DNA from: Xanthomonas sp. F10
Lineage (GTDB): Bacteria; Pseudomonadota; Gammaproteobacteria; Xanthomonadales; Xanthomonadaceae
DNA: 64,000 nt
Direction of reading: 5' to 3'
Assembly: GCF_014206815.1 (NCBI RefSeq)
Contig: NZ_JACHNP010000001.1
Location: 62,001 to 126,000 of the forward strand
Each line of letters starts with the position of its first letter. The stretch's first letter is position 1. The notes beneath the pieces are model-generated. The model made no database searches, was not told the origin of the DNA, and saw only the letters and a list, made by a program, of their open reading frames with translations. Position numbers and translations under genes: made by a program. Below, one piece after another: positions 55,662 through 62,850 of this stretch.

Positions 55662-55866
55662 GCGCGCTCGTGGCGCCGCTGGCGCCTGCGCGCTTATCGG
55701 CGTAGGCGATGCAGGCTCGACCCAAATCCGTCGCCACATCCGGGCCAGCGCCGCGCGGACGTGCCCGCGTGCTACCGGCGCCCGATACGCCGCCTGCAGC
55801 TGCCTCAGGGCGATTGCTTGCCAGCCGTCGCCCTGCTGCCGCGCCACCGCGACGTTGAAGTTGTCG
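55662..55866 (-). pseudogene. C-terminal remnant of a duplicated YdjM-like hydrolase gene
   Basis: On the minus strand these bases still encode NFNVAVARQQGDGWQAIALR, then QLQAAYRAPVARGHVRAALA and RMWRRIWVEPASPTP, matching the last 65 codons of the hydrolase gene at 57388-58461 (NFNFAVARQHGASWEAM and so on) at more than half of positions. Everything upstream is missing, and the stop has been lost. It is the relic of a tandem duplication. Confidence 0.8.
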
Positions 55867-55987
55867 CAGGCAGCTACTTTGCTGGCAATGCGGAGAAGGC
55901 TTGGCTCAGCCACCTCCAGAAGCCCGGATCAGCGCTGCGCCTGCACACCAGAATAGTGACGACATGTCCGCATTCTCGGTGTGTCTC

Positions 55988-56022
55988 AAACAAAGACGTC
56001 CCCGGCGGGAACGCCTTTGTTT
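55988..56022 (-). terminator. Hairpin terminator downstream of secreted protein A1
   Basis: AAACAAAG pairs with CTTTGTTT, and CGTCCC with GGGAACG inside, around a short GC loop. The T-rich ends on both strands make it probably bidirectional. It ends the A1 transcript and may also stop readthrough from the methyltransferase gene. Confidence 0.75.
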
Positions 56023-56063
56023 ATTTCGTCTGCGCTGCCTGCAGCAAGATCATGGGGCGATTT

Positions 56064-56750
56064 TTAGTTTGCGTAGAGTGGGAAATATCCTTGCGAAACG
56101 AGTATGTTGAAGGCTGAATGGGAGGTAGAGGCGGCCAATTCGCTGTTGCCATTAAAGAAAAGGAGGCCTCCCACATCGCACGCTGTGACAATCAACCAGC
56201 CCTTTTTCGGGTCTGGAGACCCGGCGTATTTCGCTGTGATGCCGGCCGCAAATTTGGACCAGTAGCGCGCGGAGTGTCTTGCCACGCTCAACGCGCCCAG
56301 AACCAGCGCCCCATTCTTCGACTTGGGATCGAGCCGCGCGATGCCTTCCCGTTCCAATTCCTCGAATTGCACCGCCGCAGCGTCAAGGTCACCGGCGTTC
56401 TGCACAACCTGGTCCATTCGCACGATGAACGAGAACTCGTAGGCACTGAGCTGTTGGCGCAGCCCGGCCAGGGTTTCGGCCATCGGCCGGGCCGGGTCGA
56501 TTGCATCAATCATGGGCTGGTGCGTGGCGATGAAGCGCTCCAGCGGCATGCCGGGGTTGTAGCCGCACTTCTCGACCAGGACGGCGAGCGCCTCCTCGCG
56601 CGAGGCCTTGGTCTCCATCAGGCAACCCAGGTACATGTTGTGCTGGATGCCCGCTTGGTCGATCGGGTTCTCGGCCGCCAGCGCCGGGGGGGCGCCGAAG
56701 GCATTGCCGATCAGGAGGATGGCGGTTGCAGCAAAGAGCTTCTTATTCAT
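56064..56750 (-). CDS. Secreted protein A1 of unknown family
   Basis: A 228-residue predicted exported protein. MNKKLFAATAILLIGNAFGA opens a signal peptide ending ALA-A at about 26. Mature N-terminus ENPIDQAGIQHNMYLGCLM has two cysteines (43 and 62). Residues 87-167 form helices: LAGLRQQLSAYEFSFIVRMD, EELEREGIARLDPKSKNGAL, LGALSVARHSARYWSKF. This part is near identical to A2 (58772). From about residue 168 the tail (TACDVGGLLFFNGNSELAAS and beyond) is unrelated to A2 and its DNA is clearly richer in A and T. A Gly-x-x-His-Asn start and a VARxSxxYW motif remind me of small secreted families seen in other phyla, without known function. Confidence 0.8.
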   Translation of the reverse strand: MNKKLFAATAILLIGNAFGAPPALAAENPIDQAGIQHNMYLGCLMETKASREEALAVLVEKCGYNPGMPLERFIATHQPMIDAIDPARPMAETLAGLRQQLSAYEFSFIVRMDQVVQNAGDLDAAAVQFEELEREGIARLDPKSKNGALVLGALSVARHSARYWSKFAAGITAKYAGSPDPKKGWLIVTACDVGGLLFFNGNSELAASTSHSAFNILVSQGYFPLYAN

Positions 56751-57109
56751 GCGTGTTCCCATGCAATGGATAGAGGGTGGCCAGGTCTTCCGATGTTCCT
56801 GCGGAGGATCCAGGCGAAGCGATCACCACCGCACCGGCACAAGGCGCGATGCGACGGTTTCAGGCTAGGCGGGTCGGCAACGACGCACGAGGGCGAAACC
56901 GGGTCGCCAAGGGAACGAACCGGGTCGAATTGGCGAATCCGTGGCACCACCGCCGCATCGCGGAAACGCGGCCCTGGTTGCGGCTGTGTGTCACGACCGA
57001 AGAATCAATCCCTTACGTCGACTCAATCCCGATCCATACCCGCGGCTGCGCTGGAATCTGCATCGCCGCTGCAACTAGGCTGGTGCGAGCTCTTCTGTTT
57101 AGGAAGCTC
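56751..57109. promoter_or_regulatory. Duplicated intergenic region between A1 and B1
   Basis: Non-coding, but clearly homologous to 59426-59789: shared stretches include TTTCAGGCTAGGC, CACGAGGGCGAA and GGAACGAACCGGG, ATACCCGCGG and TAGGCTG just before gene B. Conservation between copies suggests divergent promoters for A and B. Confidence 0.6.
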
Positions 57110-57369
57110 ACTGCCTGCCAGCACCCCGTCGTCCATGCCGCCGTCGTCGCGGCCCTCCTGACACAGCCCTGGGCCCTCCACGCCCACGACACCCTGCTGC
57201 CGGACCGCTGCCTGGAGCAGGACCACAAGCAGCAGGTGGTGATGAAGTTCGATTTCGACGGGGAACAATTGCGGCAGGTGATGGCCACGTGCGGGGTAGC
57301 CGACCACAAGCAGTCCCACTCGAATACCCCCGCAACATCGCCGTTTACTGCAACTTGCCTCGGCAATGA
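57110..57369 (+). pseudogene. Decayed copy of small secreted protein B
   Basis: Homologous to the gene at 59790-60176. The start codon has become ACT (57110-57112). The frame then encodes VVHAAVVAALLTQPWALHAH, DTLLPDRCLEQDHKQQVVMK and FDFDGEQLRQVMATCGVAD. A one-base deletion after codons for SNT shifts the frame; restored, it reads R-N-I-A-V-Y-C-N and stops at 57367-57369, well short of the intact length. A nonfunctional relic. Confidence 0.8.
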
Positions 57370-57387
57370 AGCTGCATCACGCCGCGC

Positions 57388-58461
57388 TCAACGCGCCGCT
57401 GTCGGCACCGGCGCACCGACCGGCACGGGCGACGCCGGTTCGACCCAGATCCGTTGCCACATCCGCACCAGCGCAGCCCGAATCTGCCCACGTGCCGCCG
57501 GCGCCCGGTAGGTGGCCTGCAACTGCCGCGGCGGCATCGCCTCCCAGCTGGCGCCGTGCTGCCGCGCCACCGCGAAATTGAAGTTGTAGTCCGGCTCCAG
57601 GCCCATGCGCAGGTCGCTGAGCACCAGTTCGCCATCTTTGACCTGCGCGCGCATGAAACCGCGGTTGAACCAGCTCAGCCGCTGCACCGCCGGCAGCGCA
57701 CGCACTTGCGCCAGCGCCTGCGTGTTGGAGGGATAGCCCTGGAAGCGCATCGGCCCGCGATCGGCGACCAGCGAGCGCTCGCCGATCACATAGCCGTTCG
57801 GGGTCATCGCCACCACCCGCCACAACACCGTGTTGAACGGCATCGGCACCGAAAAGCGCGGCGCCTGCGCCAGGCCCATCGCCGCCAGCGCGCGGTCGGC
57901 CTCGCGATCGACCAGGTGCTTGGCCAGCAGCGACCAGCCCAGGTAGGTGCTGCTCAGCAGCAACCCGGCCAGCAAGGCCTGCTGCGCCGCGCGGCGCGCG
58001 CGGGCGAACCAGGCGATGGCGTAGGCGAGCAGCAGCCACAGCGTGTAGGCGGGATCGATGATGAACACGCTCGACCACATCGTCGGCGGCGGCCGCAGCG
58101 GCCACCACAGCTGCGTGCCGTAGACAGTGAACGCATCCAGCAACGGATGGGTGATCAGCGCCAGTTGGATCGCCCAGAACCAGCGGCGCGGCGCCTCGGC
58201 GACCCGCCCGTGGCCGAAGCGGCGGAACAGCCACCAGACCAGCCAGCCGAGCAGCGGCATCACGAACAGCGAATGGCTGAAGCTGCGATGCACCGTCATC
58301 AACGTGACTGGGTCGCGGGTCAGCGGCAGCAGGATCAGCGAGTCGAGATCGGGCACGGTGCCGAGTACGGCACCGGCGAGCAGTGCCGCACGCCGATGTG
58401 CAGCCGGCGCGATGGCCGCGGCAATGGCGCCGCCGAGGACGATCTGAGTAAGGGAATCCAT
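57388..58461 (-). CDS. YdjM-like membrane-bound metal-dependent hydrolase
   Basis: A 357-residue inner-membrane protein of the YdjM/DUF457 family. It starts MDSLTQIVLGGAIAAAIAPA; metal-binding-like motifs are GTVPDLDSLILL, VHRSFSHSLFVMPLLGWLVW and ITHPLLDAFTVYGTQ. Four to five transmembrane helices are in the first 170 residues. The C-terminal half is soluble (NGYVIGERSLVADRGPMRFQ and the WVEPASPVP end). The family is thought to hydrolyse a lipid- or phospho-substrate; the reaction is not established. A truncated second copy of its 3' end lies at 55662. The downstream neighbour B1 is a pseudogene. Confidence 0.88.
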   Translation of the reverse strand: MDSLTQIVLGGAIAAAIAPAAHRRAALLAGAVLGTVPDLDSLILLPLTRDPVTLMTVHRSFSHSLFVMPLLGWLVWWLFRRFGHGRVAEAPRRWFWAIQLALITHPLLDAFTVYGTQLWWPLRPPPTMWSSVFIIDPAYTLWLLLAYAIAWFARARRAAQQALLAGLLLSSTYLGWSLLAKHLVDREADRALAAMGLAQAPRFSVPMPFNTVLWRVVAMTPNGYVIGERSLVADRGPMRFQGYPSNTQALAQVRALPAVQRLSWFNRGFMRAQVKDGELVLSDLRMGLEPDYNFNFAVARQHGASWEAMPPRQLQATYRAPAARGQIRAALVRMWQRIWVEPASPVPVGAPVPTAAR

Positions 58462-58711
58462 CGGCCGATGCTAGCAGCGATGCGGCGCGAGGCGCGCCGC
58501 GGCGGCAGCGTTCGTCGTGACTGTCCGCTGGCTTCCCTGGAGAGCGTGGGCACGCCAATCCGCGGAAGCACCGTGGCGCGCCTCGCGCGGCGCGCATCAG
58601 CAGCCAGTGCCGCGGCTGAAACCGTTCCTGCACAGCTCGCACAGCATGTCGGGCCGGACGGCTGCCGGGTCAGGCAGGCACCATCCCCGCACGCCCGACA
58701 ACGCCGCACAA

Positions 58712-58739
58712 GCAAGGCGCCCCTTCCGGGACGCCTTGC
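58712..58739 (+). terminator. Hairpin terminator between hydrolase and A2 genes
   Basis: GCAAGGCG and CCC pair with GGG and CGCCTTGC around TTCC. CATTTTTGC follows on the plus strand. It sits 33 bases beyond the A2 stop and corresponds in position to the hairpin at 55988 in the first module. The rest of 58462-58771 holds no gene; 58605-58625 resembles half a worn-out REP arm. Confidence 0.65.
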
Positions 58740-58771
58740 CATTTTTGCTGTACGCCGCTGGGATCAACCGC

Positions 58772-59425
58772 TCACTTGAACCAGCCGTGGACGACGTTGG
58801 AGACGGTCGCCGCCGTGCCGATGTTGTGCGAGGCGAGATAGCCGACCACGTCCGAACCGATGGTGGCCAGCCATTTCCAGAATCCCTTCTTCGCGGTGGC
58901 GCCAGCCGGGGACTCCCCCTGCTCTGCCGCATACTTGGACCAGTACTGGGTGGAGTGCCTGGCCACGCTCAGTCCGCCCAGGATCAGCGCACCATTCTGC
59001 GATTTCGGATCGAGCCGCGCGATGGCCTCCCGCTCCAGTTCCTCGAACTGCACCGCCGCCGCGTCCAGGTCCTCGGCGTTCTGCACGATCTGGTCCATCC
59101 GCTCGATGAACGAGTATTCGTAGGCACTGAGCTGCTGGCGCAGCCCGGCCAGGTTCTCGGTCATCGGCCGGGTCGGATCGACGCCATCGACGATGGGCTG
59201 CTGCGTGGCGACGAACCGCTCCAGCGGCACGCCGGGGGCATAGCCGCACTTCTTGACCAGCAGGGTCAGCGCGCCCTCGGCCGTGGCATTCAGGTCCATC
59301 AGGCAGCCCAGGTACATGTTGTGCTGGATACCGGCCTGGTCCACCGGGTTTTCGGCGGCCAGCGCAGGGGCGCCGACGACACTGCCCGCCAGCAGAGCGG
59401 TGGCGACAAGGAACTTCTTCTTCAT
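58772..59425 (-). CDS. Secreted protein A2 of unknown family
   Basis: A 217-residue predicted exported protein. The start at 59425 gives MKKKFLVATALLAGSVVGAP, a signal peptide ending ALA-A; GAGAG lies seven bases upstream. The mature protein begins ENPVDQAGIQHNMYLGCLMD with cysteines at 41 and 60, and runs through RPMTENLAGLRQQLSAYEYS, FEELEREAIARLDPKSQNGA and GLSVARHSTQYWSKYA, close to A1. The C-terminal tail differs from A1: TAKKGFWKWLATIGSDVVGY and a glycine/alanine-rich end NIGTAATVSNVVHGWFK, which could be membrane-active. Divergent from gene B2. Function unknown. Confidence 0.82.
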   Translation of the reverse strand: MKKKFLVATALLAGSVVGAPALAAENPVDQAGIQHNMYLGCLMDLNATAEGALTLLVKKCGYAPGVPLERFVATQQPIVDGVDPTRPMTENLAGLRQQLSAYEYSFIERMDQIVQNAEDLDAAAVQFEELEREAIARLDPKSQNGALILGGLSVARHSTQYWSKYAAEQGESPAGATAKKGFWKWLATIGSDVVGYLASHNIGTAATVSNVVHGWFK

Positions 59426-59789
59426 GAGCGTTCTCTCGCTATTGGAAGGGATTGGAGATGGCTGGGTGCATGGATCGCCCCCGGGGGATATGGCCACCGC
59501 CGCATCGGCAGACGCTGCGATCCGGCGATTTCAGGCTAGGCAAGCCGCCACCGGGACACGAGGGCGAAGCCGGGCCGTGCGTGGAACGAACCGGGCCAGA
59601 TCGGCGAGCCGAGCGCGGTGGCGTGGCTGCACGGCGCGGCGTGCCGCGTCTGCGGCGCGGATGCTCCGACCGTCAAGAATCAAGGCGTTAGGCGGATTTA
59701 TTCCCGGTCTATACCCGCGGAGGCGCTGGCATCCGTCGCAGCGCCGCTCTTAGGCTGCGGGTCCGCTTTCCGCGCATTGCGAGGTTCCG
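59426..59789. promoter_or_regulatory. Divergent promoter region between A2 and B2
   Basis: About 360 bases without a supported gene, homologous to 56751-57109. Shared blocks: TTTCAGGCTAGGC (59528-59540), GGAACGAACCGGG (59582-59594), TATACCCGCGG and TAGGCTGCGGG close to B2. GCGAGGTTCCG precedes the B2 ATG. Confidence 0.6.
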
Positions 59790-60176
59790 ATGTCTGCTTA
59801 CCGCTCCGTCTTCCATGCCGCCGTCGTCGCGTTGCTGTTTGCCCTACCCTTGGCCGCCCACGGCCACGACACCTTGCCACCGGACTGGTGCCTGGAGCAG
59901 GACCAGGAACCGGAGGTCGTGGTGAAGTTCGATTTCGACGGCGAGCAGTTGCGGCAGACGATGGACAAGTGCGGGGTGGTCGATAGCCACGAGCCGTACA
60001 CGAATACGCTGAACACCATTGCGGCCTATTGCGAGGTGGTGGCGCCGTCGCGATCGGCCAAGCCCATCGTGCTCGGTCCCACGACGTTCCTGGCCCGCGA
60101 CCACCACAGCAGCTATCGCATGGAACACGGCTTGAAAGGCGCGTGCGTGGTCTGCCCGGCCAAGCGCGGGCGCTGA
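59790..60176 (+). CDS. Small cysteine-rich secreted protein B2
   Basis: A 128-residue predicted exported protein, not recognised. The signal peptide (MSAYRSVFHAAVVALLFALP) ends at LAAHG-H. The mature part has five cysteines (34, 61, 81, 119, 122), suggesting disulfides: DTLPPDWCLEQDQEPEVVVK, FDFDGEQLRQTMDKCGVVDS, TIAAYCEVVAP and LKGACVVCPAKRGR. It is divergent from A2, and a decayed copy lies at 57110 next to A1, so A and B seem to belong together. Confidence 0.78.
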   Translation: MSAYRSVFHAAVVALLFALPLAAHGHDTLPPDWCLEQDQEPEVVVKFDFDGEQLRQTMDKCGVVDSHEPYTNTLNTIAAYCEVVAPSRSAKPIVLGPTTFLARDHHSSYRMEHGLKGACVVCPAKRGR

Positions 60177-60242: not shown

Positions 60243-62441
60243 TCAGCCCAGCGCGTCCCGGCGGGTGTAGGCCAGCACCGTGTCGATCCTGCACTGCAAG
60301 GCGGCGCGCGCCTCTGCCGACAGCCCCTCGCACTGCGCGAGCACGAAATAGGCCGAGCGCAGCACGTCCCGCCAGCGCGGGTTGCGCGGCAGCTTGGCGA
60401 CCGCCAAATAGCGCTCCATCGCCCGCGCGCGCAGGCGCCCGTCGTCGATGTTCACGCGCCAGATCCGGCTGCGCTCGGCCAACTCCAGCCGGCCGGTCGC
60501 CGTGGCGCGCTCCCAGGTATCGATGACCGCCAGCATCAAGTCGACCAGCGCACGCCGGAAGGCATCGCGCAACGCAGGCGCGGCGGCCTCGGCTTGCGCG
60601 TGCTCGGCCTGCACGATGTCCGACGCCGCGCCACTGTCGCGTTCCTGCAGGGCGAGCACGACCAGGCCATCGCCGCCCTGCCAGGGCGCGAGGGTGGCGG
60701 CGAGCGGCGTGCCGTGCCGCGCCTCGACCTCAAGCCGCTGTGCGGCACTGTCCTCCATCCGTTCCAGCGCCGCCTGCAAGGCCGGTCGGTCGCTCTCGGC
60801 AACGCAGGCGAACACCGCCTGCCCGACCGGTTCGGCGGCGTCCGCGCCGCCAAGCAGCAGGCGGCCGGCACGATTGGTGGCCAGCACCTGGCCTTCGGCA
60901 TCGAGCAGGCACAGCGCATCCTCGCGACTGTCGAGCAGGGTCTGCAGCAGGCTGCGATCCTCGGCCAGCGCATCGGCCTCTCGGCGATAGCGCGCGAGTT
61001 GCTCCTCGTGGCGGACCTGCTGCGCGGCTTGCAGCACGTGCTCGCGCTGCCGGCGACGCTGCAGCCACAGCCAGACGCCGAGCACCGCGGCGACGCCCGA
61101 CACCAGCGCCAGCCACAGCAGCAAGGTGCGCTGGCGCAGCTGGACCTGGCGCAGGCGGTTTTCGCTCTGCAGGGCATCGATAGTGCGCTGCTTTTCGGCG
61201 GTATCGAAGCGGACCCGCAGCCAGTCCAACTGGCGATCGTGCTGCGCGCGCACCAGTGCGGCGGCTTCCGTGTTCGCACGCCGCAGCGTGGCGATGGCCG
61301 CGCCCGGATCGCCACTGCTTTCCTGCAGCCGTGCCAGTTCTTCCAGCAATGGCACCCGCACCGGATCGCCGCCGGCCGCCGCCGCCAACGCCGCGCGCAA
61401 GCGTGCCGCGGCGGCGGCGGCATTGCCTTGAAGCCGGGCCGTCCGCGCCAGTTGCAGCTGCAACGCGGACGGCAACGGCAGCGCCCATGCCTCGGCCAGC
61501 GCGAGCGCACTGGAGCTCCAGCGCTGCGCCTGCGCCACGTCGCCAAGCGCCAGTGCCGCGCGGATCAGGCCATCGTGCACACGCAGTTCGTACACCCGGC
61601 GGCCCTGCGCGCGGTACACGGCCAGCGCTTCCTGCAACCAGGCCAGCGCCTGCGCCGTGTCGCCACTGTCGAGCGCCAGCTCGGCCATGGTTTCCTGCAC
61701 ATGCGCGGCCTCGATGGCGTCGCCCTGCGCGCGGTTGGCGGCCAGCGCCTCGCGGTAGTAGCGCATCGCGGTGTCGGGCTCGCGCAGTTCGCGATACACG
61801 TCGGCGATATTGGTGAGCACGGACGCCGACGCCGCGCCGCGCGCGCGCTGCAGGTCCAGGCTCAGCGTCAGGTGGCGCAAGGCGCCGCGGAAATCGCCGA
61901 GCCGGCGCAGCGCCGCACCCACATTGTTCAGATCGCGCGCCTCGCCCGCACGGTCGTGCAGCGACCGGGACAGCGTGGCTGCACATTCGAAGCGCGCCAG
62001 CGCCTGCGGCAGGCGTTCGCGGCGGAAATCGAGAATGCCGCGGCGGCGGGTGAGTTCGTAGCGCAGGCGGGTATCGCCGGCATCGCCGATGTTGGCCGCG
62101 GCACAGTCCAGCGCCTGTTCGGCAGCGTCGAGGCGGCCGCCGTCGAGCTGCTCCTTGGCACGCGCAAACAATGCCGCGACCCGCGCTTCGCCCGCCGTGT
62201 GCGGCGTCGATACGCCCGCCTGCTGCACGCACAGCAACGGATCGGGAAGCGGACGCGGCGCCGCCGGCTCCGCGCAGCCATACACCGTGTTCTGCGCCAT
62301 CGAGTCCGCACTTGCCGCGAGCAGCACGCCCAGGCACGCCAAGCGCAGGCATGTCCGCGGCCGCGCACCAGGCGCGGTGACATGCGCCTGGACAAGATCG
62401 CCGGAAACGGCAGACCAGGCCAAGCCGCGCCACGTCCCCAT
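60243..62441 (-). CDS. TPR-repeat membrane protein with PAS-like domain
   Basis: A 732-residue protein. The start is uncertain: ATG 62441 gives about 30 residues before a signal-like segment (LRLACLGVLLAASADSMAQ). Residues 80-390 are tetratricopeptide repeats (RLDAAEQALDCAAANIGDAG, GEARDLNNVGAALRRLGDFR, DVYRELREPDTAMRYYREAL). A coiled coil and one transmembrane helix follow (LLLWLALVSGVAAVLGVWLW), then a PAS-like domain at about 490-590 (DALCLLDAEGQVLATNRAGR). The last 110 residues are a conserved helical domain (SRIWRVNIDDGRLRARAMER, NPRWRDVLRSAYFVLAQC). There are no kinase, GGDEF or HTH motifs. Probably a periplasmic sensor with a cytoplasmic output of unknown type. Confidence 0.8.
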   Translation of the reverse strand: MGTWRGLAWSAVSGDLVQAHVTAPGARPRTCLRLACLGVLLAASADSMAQNTVYGCAEPAAPRPLPDPLLCVQQAGVSTPHTAGEARVAALFARAKEQLDGGRLDAAEQALDCAAANIGDAGDTRLRYELTRRRGILDFRRERLPQALARFECAATLSRSLHDRAGEARDLNNVGAALRRLGDFRGALRHLTLSLDLQRARGAASASVLTNIADVYRELREPDTAMRYYREALAANRAQGDAIEAAHVQETMAELALDSGDTAQALAWLQEALAVYRAQGRRVYELRVHDGLIRAALALGDVAQAQRWSSSALALAEAWALPLPSALQLQLARTARLQGNAAAAAARLRAALAAAAGGDPVRVPLLEELARLQESSGDPGAAIATLRRANTEAAALVRAQHDRQLDWLRVRFDTAEKQRTIDALQSENRLRQVQLRQRTLLLWLALVSGVAAVLGVWLWLQRRRQREHVLQAAQQVRHEEQLARYRREADALAEDRSLLQTLLDSREDALCLLDAEGQVLATNRAGRLLLGGADAAEPVGQAVFACVAESDRPALQAALERMEDSAAQRLEVEARHGTPLAATLAPWQGGDGLVVLALQERDSGAASDIVQAEHAQAEAAAPALRDAFRRALVDLMLAVIDTWERATATGRLELAERSRIWRVNIDDGRLRARAMERYLAVAKLPRNPRWRDVLRSAYFVLAQCEGLSAEARAALQCRIDTVLAYTRRDALG

Positions 62442-62850
62442 GGATCGGCGCGACCGGCCGCACAACGCCTTCCCTGGTTTCACGGTCTCCACAACTCCAG
62501 AACTGATCGGGATGCGGCGCACGCGCGCCGCCGCGCCATGGATCAGCGCGACGCCCGGACGCGAACGTGGGTTCCTGCCCGGGCATGCCGCGCCGACGCA
62601 CCGCAGTAGACCCGATGCCACGGAAGCCGGGCAAGCATGCGCGGTGGTGATGCACACCCCACACGGGCAATCGTGGAATGGCGGTCACGCCAGGTTCTAC
62701 GCTTCCGTCCAGTGCAGGGGCGCGGCGCCACGACCGGGGCGATCGCGATCGGGACAACGGCACGGCACGCAGACGCGGCAGCAGTCGAACGCAGCAATCT
62801 CCGGTCACGTGCCAGGCGGTTGCAGCGCCGCCTGGCAACGATCGCCTGAC
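62442..62850. other. Gap between TPR gene and LpxH-like gene
   Basis: About 410 bases. The minus-strand frame of the TPR gene stays open through much of it, so part could be coding if a farther start is used, but there is no support for that. No repeat, hairpin terminator or other gene was seen. Confidence 0.4.

What the first reader, a model, noticed from the sequence alone, without database searches (positions are those of the whole stretch)
55662..60176. Tandem duplication of an unknown hydrolase-A-B module, with decay of one copy
Two units lie head to tail: [hydrolase remnant 55662-55866, A1, B1 pseudogene] and [hydrolase 57388-58461, A2, B2]. The hydrolase 3' end, gene A, the A-B intergenic region, gene B and even the terminator hairpins (55988 and 58712) correspond in order and orientation. 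That linkage through duplication suggests the YdjM-like membrane hydrolase, secreted A and secreted Cys-rich B are one functional unit. I know of no described system with this composition.
Basis: partly seen in the sequence, partly recalled or inferred. Interest (0 to 1): 0.75.

Follow-up and report, generated by a model that had tools for sequence, protein, structure and literature searches.

The report
Secreted protein pair with transmembrane regulator
A doubled stretch of a probable Xanthomonas genome holds two unnamed exported proteins that belong with a neighbouring membrane-anchored gene regulator rather than with the hydrolase beside them, and a matching short DNA site, probably where that regulator binds, precedes its partner gene in many related bacteria.

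Summary
The tandem duplication is real: the A-B block (56245-57327 vs 58926-60007) is 74% identical over 1101 columns, the hydrolase 3' end 77% over 195. B1 is truncated, A1 intact. The proposed unit has one wrong member and lacks another. The YdjM hydrolase is a fixed neighbour: intact in 16 of 20 genus genomes, 6 of them without A (beyond two relics), B and regulator; five of the six show hydrolase next to lpxH. The missing member is T (60243-62570, minus): TPR, TM, PAS and a C-terminal ChiS-family DNA-binding domain (PDB 7KPO, E 4.5e-17). Family-wide B is in 41 of 297 genomes, T in 42, both in 40; 34 of 35 T genes examined have a convergent B. A site, TTCCCGtTTTnTnCCCGC, lies at -100..-78 from B in 32 of 36 loci by leave-one-out (shuffles: mean 1.9, max 6), most without a neighbouring A; A has a variant of it. 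Best reading: a local transmembrane transcription module in which T, with periplasmic B, drives A and B. Extra A copies are kept and their tails diverge; extra B and hydrolase copies decay. Biochemistry of A and B is unknown.

The parts
55669..55864 (-). remnant of the hydrolase 3' end (copy 1), bystander
   Evidence: (77% to 57393-57587; 67% aa identity, hydrolase residues 292-357)
55987..56023 (-). hairpin downstream of A1
   Evidence: -23.4 kcal/mol, z -4.0; no T-tract terminator called
56064..56750 (-). A1, exported all-helical protein, intact paralogue (A1 type)
   Evidence: A1-type clade 100/100; median pN/pS of the A1-type core 0.25
56894..56926 (-). A-side operator copy 1, two CCCGG half-sites 21 nt apart, kept
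   Evidence: (0 mismatches; with the A2 copy the only matches up to 3 mismatches in the genome)
57026..57043 (+). decayed B-side operator of B1
   Evidence: 3 mismatches; 7.8 bits against 18.8 for B2, model trained without the window and L093
57126..57327 (+). B1 remnant, 5' part of B only
57388..58461 (-). YdjM-family membrane hydrolase, conserved neighbour and not part of the module
   Evidence: Pfam YdjM 2.4e-30; distribution
58711..58740 (-). hairpin between A2 and the hydrolase start
   Evidence: -32.9 kcal/mol, z -4.6
58772..59425 (-). A2, exported all-helical protein with a variable C-terminal tail
59565..59597 (-). A-side operator of A2
59701..59718 (+). B-side operator TTCCCGGTCTATACCCGC, -89 from the B2 start codon
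   Evidence: 18.8 bits held out; only site of 13 bits or more in the 64-kb window; only match under 3 mismatches in the genome
59790..60176 (+). B2, exported protein with five conserved Cys, an HHxxY motif and a likely N-terminal His after signal cleavage
60243..62570 (-). T, TPR - TM - PAS - ChiS-family DNA-binding domain; start codon not settled (frame open to 62657)

Best explanation
A, B and T form one locally acting, membrane-anchored transcription module; the hydrolase is a bystander caught in the duplication. T is read as an inner-membrane regulator: TPR sensor part (periplasmic by inference), one clear TM helix (481-504), PAS, and a C-terminal ChiS-family DNA-binding domain. It recognises tandem CCCG half-sites 10-11 bp apart (TTCCCGtTTTnTnCCCGC) about 85 nt before B, with a variant in front of the divergent secreted gene, and so switches both from the membrane. 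B is exported, Cys- and His-rich, and convergent to T; it most likely works as T's periplasmic co-sensor, as CBP does for ChiS in Vibrio cholerae, perhaps by binding a metal or redox cue. A is one of several secreted outputs that such B-T pairs control. In Xanthomonas, tandem duplication repeatedly multiplied A: extra A copies stayed intact, their core under purifying selection, while their C-terminal tails diverged; extra B and hydrolase copies decayed, and in the window the A-side operator of copy 1 is kept while its B-side operator has decayed. SHOWN by computation: linkage, co-presence and absence, homology of the T C-terminus to ChiS, the positioned motif, fates of the copies. INFERRED: that T binds the motif, that it activates, T's topology, that B signals to T, that A acts outside the cell.
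For: Unit: in 20 genus genomes full-length A and B are in the same 10, T in the same 10 (for 8, for G002 and G018) and, at E <= 1e-60, in none of the other 10. Five genomes without them read dusC-(MT)-hydrolase-lpxH. Family: B 41 (E <= 1e-3), T 42 (E <= 1e-60), both 40 of 297 (hypergeometric 5.5e-46, not corrected for kinship); 34 of 35 T genes have a convergent B within 700 nt. Of 28 A-positive genomes all 26 with more than a 35-aa relic have T. T: C-terminus against PDB 7KPO E 4.5e-17; of the ChiS-critical positions R1074 is R and K1078 is R in 36 of 36 T proteins, R1090 R in 35 of 36, R1092 R in 36 of 36 (chosen without a motif filter). Operator: leave-one-out 32 of 36 B upstreams at -100..-78 (shuffle mean 1.9, max 6); 0 of 2776 random windows reach the median score; half-site spacing peaks at 10 and 11 nt. 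A genes away from B: 5 of 13 have a site of at least 9 bits at -185..-150, against 0.18% of 4000 random windows. Own genome: A-side motif only at A1 and A2. Copy fate: A1-type core pN/pS 0.25, tails about 0.7.
Against: No binding or expression data. The motif model was seeded by eye from the same regions, though the shuffles used the same seed. R1068 of ChiS is D (35) or A (1) in 36 T proteins. 8 of 13 A genes away from B lack a site of 9 bits at the expected distance, and one of the 5 with a site lies in the same locus as a B-T pair, about 6 kb from B. Some extra A copies in the genus have no site at their front (second A of L083, L084, L085, L086). One of 35 T lacks an adjacent B; two T genomes have no B (G106, G152) and one B genome no T (G058). 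Several T frames are split in two (L096, L131, L132, L135, L138) and were counted as T. No second hydrophobic helix above my threshold marks the N-terminus of T (best 19-mer 1.53 at residue 74), so a periplasmic TPR part is not shown. The B fold is low confidence (pLDDT 68) and matches nothing, so the co-sensor role is analogy. The A-side sites score lower (5.8-7.7 bits in the window).
Confidence: 0.67

Rival explanations
1. One reading: the YdjM-like hydrolase, A and B form one functional unit that was duplicated as a unit.
For: All three lie in both copies; the hydrolase is beside A-B in all 10 genus genomes with A-B and in Luteimonas aquatica.
Against: The hydrolase is intact in 6 genomes without B or T and without full-length A, gives no hit beside A-B in L094-L097, is separated from A2 by a hairpin, and its second copies in G000, G006, G010 and G011 are fragments.
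Confidence: 0.04
2. A is an antibacterial exported effector with a polymorphic toxic tail and B its matching immunity protein.
For: A has a conserved core and a fast-diverging tail (core pN/pS 0.25-0.35, tail about 0.7), paralogues up to four per genome, and B is divergent beside it.
Against: B does not follow A copies: the extra B matches at the locus are fragments; 11 of 19 A genes in the other-genus loci have no B within 3 kb (9 of 17 without a repeat), and only 8 of 36 B genes have a divergent A within 1.5 kb. B is paired with T instead.
Confidence: 0.1
3. The conserved CCCG operator belongs to some other regulator, and T is only a neighbour.
For: No direct binding evidence exists; the motif was found by position, not by experiment.
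Against: In the own genome the motif is confined to this locus at up to 2 mismatches (B side) and 3 mismatches (A side), whereas a global regulator would have many sites; B and T co-occur in 40 genomes; T has a DNA-binding domain of a known kind.
Confidence: 0.15
4. A-B-T is a recently mobile cargo inserted next to the hydrolase, and the presence/absence pattern reflects insertion.
For: Absence as a block in several genomes; one A homologue lies among phage-like genes (L101).
Against: The same site holds A-B-T in another genus (L093; named Luteimonas aquatica through), so presence may be ancestral with repeated loss; no A match on the plasmid or phage records at the limits used and no viral-contig relative.
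Confidence: 0.08

Closest known systems
ChiS with periplasmic CBP (Vibrio cholerae chitin response)
   Same: Regulator with a PAS domain and the same kind of C-terminal DNA-binding domain (PMC8092284, passages; membrane anchoring recalled, and seen only in a search listing). ChiS is repressed by periplasmic CBP without chitin and activated by chitin-bound CBP (PMC10208484, passages); it binds two sites in Pchb (PMC8092284, passages).
   Different: T has TPR repeats and no histidine kinase or receiver match in Pfam; B is 128 aa without a Pfam match; in the own genome the candidate operator is found at this locus only.
TPR proteins with a ChiS-family DNA-binding domain (Klancher et al. 2021)
   Same: TPR is listed among the domains combined with the ChiS-family domain in the legend of their Fig. 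5A (PMC8092284, section 10). T fits that kind of architecture.
   Different: The text seen names no partner gene, operator or target for the TPR type. The supplement was not read.
YdjM (PF04307) membrane hydrolases
   Same: The neighbouring hydrolase at 57388-58461 is a plain member.
   Different: Not part of the module.

Membership tests
ChiS-family DNA-binding domain proteins | sequence homology to the ChiS DNA-binding domain (7KPO) | tested here: met
   phmmer E 4.5e-17 over 86 residues
ChiS-family DNA-binding domain proteins | domain at the extreme C terminus, sensory domains before it | tested here: met
   TPR (best stretch 249-321) and PAS 546-635 by Pfam; the ChiS-like stretch follows near the end
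ChiS-family DNA-binding domain proteins | basic residues critical for DNA binding (R1068, R1074, K1078, R1090, R1092) | tested here: met
   R1074, K1078 (as R) and R1092 basic in 36 of 36 T proteins, R1090 in 35 of 36 (one H); R1068 replaced by D (35) or A (1), a position the paper calls poorly conserved
ChiS-family DNA-binding domain proteins | sequence-specific DNA binding | not testable with these tools
   a positioned candidate operator was found; binding needs EMSA
ChiS orthologue (hybrid sensor kinase) | histidine kinase and receiver domains | tested here: not met
   none among the Pfam matches of T at E <= 0.1
CBP-like periplasmic partner | membership of a known periplasmic binding-protein family | tested here: not met
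   B has no Pfam, NCBIfam, PADLOC or PDB match at a useful E-value; only the working analogy is claimed
YdjM hydrolase (PF04307) | Pfam gathering score | tested here: met
   105.8 bits against a cut-off of 29
Effector-immunity pair (A-B) | cognate partner accompanies each effector copy | tested here: not met
   extra A copies without an intact extra B; 11 of 19 A genes have no B within 3 kb
Known anti-phage defence systems | match to a PADLOC model | tested here: not met
   0 families for A1, A2, B2 and the hydrolase; T was not scanned

The most novel reading that the evidence does not exclude
Xanthomonadaceae carry a modular regulatory cassette, B-T: a TPR-PAS-ChiS transmembrane transcription factor with a private periplasmic His/Cys-rich co-sensor and a positioned operator. 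It is plugged into different secreted cargo genes (A here; elsewhere unnamed small exported proteins, an F5/8C-domain protein, a subtilase) and is tandemly arrayed in some genomes, so each copy links one envelope cue to one secreted product; A is a cargo family that diversifies its tail by repeated duplication.
Probability: 0.4. Interest if true: 0.75.

Novelty: new variant of a known kind. Interest (0 to 1): 0.6.

Why it matters
It turns three genes without a described role into a testable signalling module and gives a candidate binding site for TPR-type ChiS-family regulators, whose published catalogue (as far as read) lists the architecture without targets. Regulators that stay in the membrane while binding DNA are hard to study; a family with a partner gene, an 18-bp positioned site and natural tandem copies makes the questions of what is sensed, how the signal crosses the membrane, and how specificity is kept between neighbouring copies directly approachable. 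It also corrects an inference drawn from a duplication alone: linkage through duplication drew in a bystander.

Tried and rejected
Named family for A or B: none in Pfam, NCBIfam, PADLOC, PHROGs or PDB at a useful E-value; the A2 signal peptide region has a sub-threshold NCBIfam match, and the B profile's best PDB rows are copper oxidases at E 1.3-1.6, which is chance. Fold searches: B (pLDDT 68) matches nothing in PDB with E <= 0.001, nor does A (pLDDT 86) in PDB or in the viral library. Plasmids, phages, viral contigs: no A relative at the limits used. Class-wide profiles: A in 1 of 369 genomes (the own one), B in 2 of 369 (the own one and one of the same order); these profiles may miss distant kin. 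A guess from memory that A resembles exported Bacteroidota proteins was not tested. Sigma-70 and terminator scans found nothing. Papers: ChiS + Xanthomonas + tetratricopeptide 0; transmembrane transcriptional regulator + tetratricopeptide + Lysobacter 0; ChiS + TPR + PAS domain + periplasmic + one-component 0; a five-term search 0; ChiS + transmembrane transcriptional regulator + chitin binding protein + periplasmic 0; ChiS-family + DNA-binding domain 5 papers, of which I opened two. The library holds open-licence papers only, so this does not show that nothing is in print.

Corrected on checking: the count of conserved T residues had chosen its rows by a motif that contains two of those residues, so it was redone without that filter. 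One search had also counted one A gene (L032) as away from B although it is the A of L136; one search drops it (13 instead of 14). The null had not left out B upstreams and is not used.

Dropped rows: one near-identical upstream (L095) before the leave-one-out; L104 and L149, repeats of L095 and L105, (L106, a repeat of L099, was left); B hits starting beyond profile position 20; A proteins identical over their first 120 residues. Rows kept that weaken the case: 4 of 36 loci outside the positional window. In one search the A of L136 counts as divergent to B although another gene lies between.
Full report
WHAT IS THERE. The window lies in a 4.78-Mb genome. Its genus is probably Xanthomonas: G002, in the same genus, carries a contig of 97,393 bases, the length of the X. 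bonasiae contig found with the same gene. On the map, left to right: nupC, rbsK, dusC, a methyltransferase, [hydrolase remnant, A1, B1 remnant], [hydrolase, A2, B2], T, an LpxH-like metallophosphatase gene (a TonB-receptor-like frame lies between rbsK and dusC by eye; names such as dusC, rbsK, nupC and lpxH are my labels from Pfam matches and recall). A runs leftwards and B rightwards from a shared region of about 360 nt; T converges on B.

THE HYDROLASE IS A BYSTANDER. Of 20 genus genomes, 18 have a hydrolase match and 16 an intact-length one. Full-length A is in 10, and 2 more hold only a 27-35 residue relic. B is in 10, the same ten. Six genomes (G009, G013, G014, G015, G017, G019) have an intact hydrolase without full-length A, B or T. 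In five of them the next of the searched genes is lpxH, 240-680 nt away; in G019 no lpxH was found in the stretch. In L094-L097, other genera, A, B and T stand without a hydrolase hit. A hairpin lies between A2 and the hydrolase.

THE MISSING MEMBER. The gene right of B, T, has TPR repeats and a PAS domain by Pfam, one clear hydrophobic helix at 481-504 and a weaker hydrophobic stretch at 74-92 that may be a signal. Pfam finds nothing at its C-terminus. Against PDB sequences the C-terminus matches 7KPO, the DNA-binding domain of ChiS, with E 4.5e-17. I read the outline, passages and sections 9 and 10 of the describing paper (PMC8092284). TPR is among the listed companions of this domain. Four of five ChiS residues critical for binding are kept or replaced R for K in nearly all of 36 T proteins (R1090 in 35, the other three in 36); R1068 is not. 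T is in 42 of 297 family genomes at E <= 1e-60, B in 41 at E <= 1e-3, both in 40. In the loci fetched, 34 of 35 T genes have B convergent within 700 nt (split T frames were merged). A is the looser partner: 8 of 36 B genes have a divergent A within 1.5 kb, and 11 of 19 A genes have no B within 3 kb, 9 of 17 without a repeat. These loci were chosen from the genomes with hits and are not all of them. Elsewhere the gene beside B is often a different exported protein: small families without Pfam match, about 730-aa proteins of which two match F5/8C-type domains (one below the cut-off), a subtilase in L146 (that they are exported is my reading of their N-termini). In several genomes B-T pairs form tandem arrays.

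A SHARED, POSITIONED SITE. The A-B intergenic region has blocks conserved in both window copies, nine other genus genomes and L093. Their core, CCCGG, recurs upstream of B genes that have no A. In 37 B upstreams (450 nt), 34 hold an exact CCCGG with a second half-site of at least 4 of 5 matches 10-11 nt away, against 10.3 (max 18) in dinucleotide shuffles and 17% of random windows of the same loci. Spacings of 10 and 11 (25 and 26 regions) stand out over all others from 6 to 30 (at most 15). A one-site model gives TTCCCGtTTTnTnCCCGC; leaving each locus out in turn, the best site falls at -100..-78 in 32 of 36, against a mean of 1.9 (max 6) for 50 shuffled sets run with the same seed, and 0 of 2776 random windows reach the median score. 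The seed was chosen after looking at these regions, which the shuffles control only in part. A model trained without the window and L093 scores the B2 site 18.8 bits and the B1 relic 7.8. The genome has no other match with fewer than 3 mismatches; three unrelated places match with 3, against one for the reversed control. The A-side form occurs twice in the genome, at A1 and A2, without mismatch. Of 13 A genes with no B within 3 kb, 5 carry a site of 9 bits or more at -185..-150, where linked A genes have theirs; 0.18% of 4000 random windows do. The other 8 do not, and one of the 5 lies in the same stretch as a B-T pair.

COPY FATES. A is present up to four times in a genome (G006), while intact B and T stay single in the genus genomes with extra A. 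The A1 type is one clade (8 rows from 7 genomes, 100/100). Its core is under purifying selection (median pN/pS 0.25) and its tail much less so (0.71); the A2 type shows 0.35 and 0.70. WIN_A1 and WIN_A2 share 78% of core residues and 29% of aligned tail residues. In the window the A-side operator is intact in copy 1 while the B-side operator has decayed. In some genomes an extra A has no such site at its front (second A of L083, L084, L085, L086). What is kept is A, and in the window also its switch.

A AND B THEMSELVES. A is predicted all-helical with high confidence (pLDDT 86, pTM 0.83) from a 7-row alignment, with a C-terminal helical pair after a loose linker; it has two Cys invariant in 9 aligned members and no fold match. 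B has five Cys, an HH pair and one more His (H26) invariant in 7 aligned members. Among 34 full-length B proteins (two places counted twice) HHxxY/F is in 34, a C-x-[VIA]-C in 27, CG[IV] in 28, and in 30 a pattern fits a His right after the likely signal cleavage (the cleavage is my reading, no predictor was run). That would suit metal binding; it is not shown. The B model is poor.

HOW IT MOST LIKELY WORKS. By analogy with ChiS, which periplasmic CBP holds inactive until chitin binds (PMC10208484, passages), T would read an envelope cue, with B as co-sensor, and bind the site near B and the divergent secreted gene while staying in the membrane. About 85 nt before the start codon, with a TAnnnT-like element between (my reading), the site is placed as for an activator; repression is not excluded. 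A would be the output.

COMPARED WITH WHAT IS KNOWN. T meets the tested features of ChiS-family proteins and fails those of ChiS itself (no kinase or receiver). B and A belong to no family in the libraries searched. Literature searches for this combination returned nothing, in an open-licence library only.

Noticed in passing
L091 6973-7041 (minus), L092 8090-8170 (plus): Two genus genomes without A-B-T keep a 27-35 residue relic of A at another place, beside genes that look like creC and creD (names recalled).
   Followed up: partly
L101 6755-7393: An A homologue (G106) lies among phage-like genes, including a primase-like and a RuvC-like protein by eye.
   Followed up: no
L131, L132, L134, L135, L138-L140: Tandem arrays of B-T pairs alternate with small exported protein families, several of which have no Pfam match.
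   Followed up: partly
L099 6368-8780, L100 6915-9707: Two Lysobacter-like genomes have two A paralogues flanking one or two other conserved small genes, away from B and T.
   Followed up: no
window 59426-59540: The A transcript would have a leader of about 100 nt if the conserved GCCTAGCCTGAAA block is its -10 region.
   Followed up: no
L162, L163: In two genus genomes the hydrolase itself is broken into pieces (G005, G004), so it may be dispensable there.
   Followed up: no
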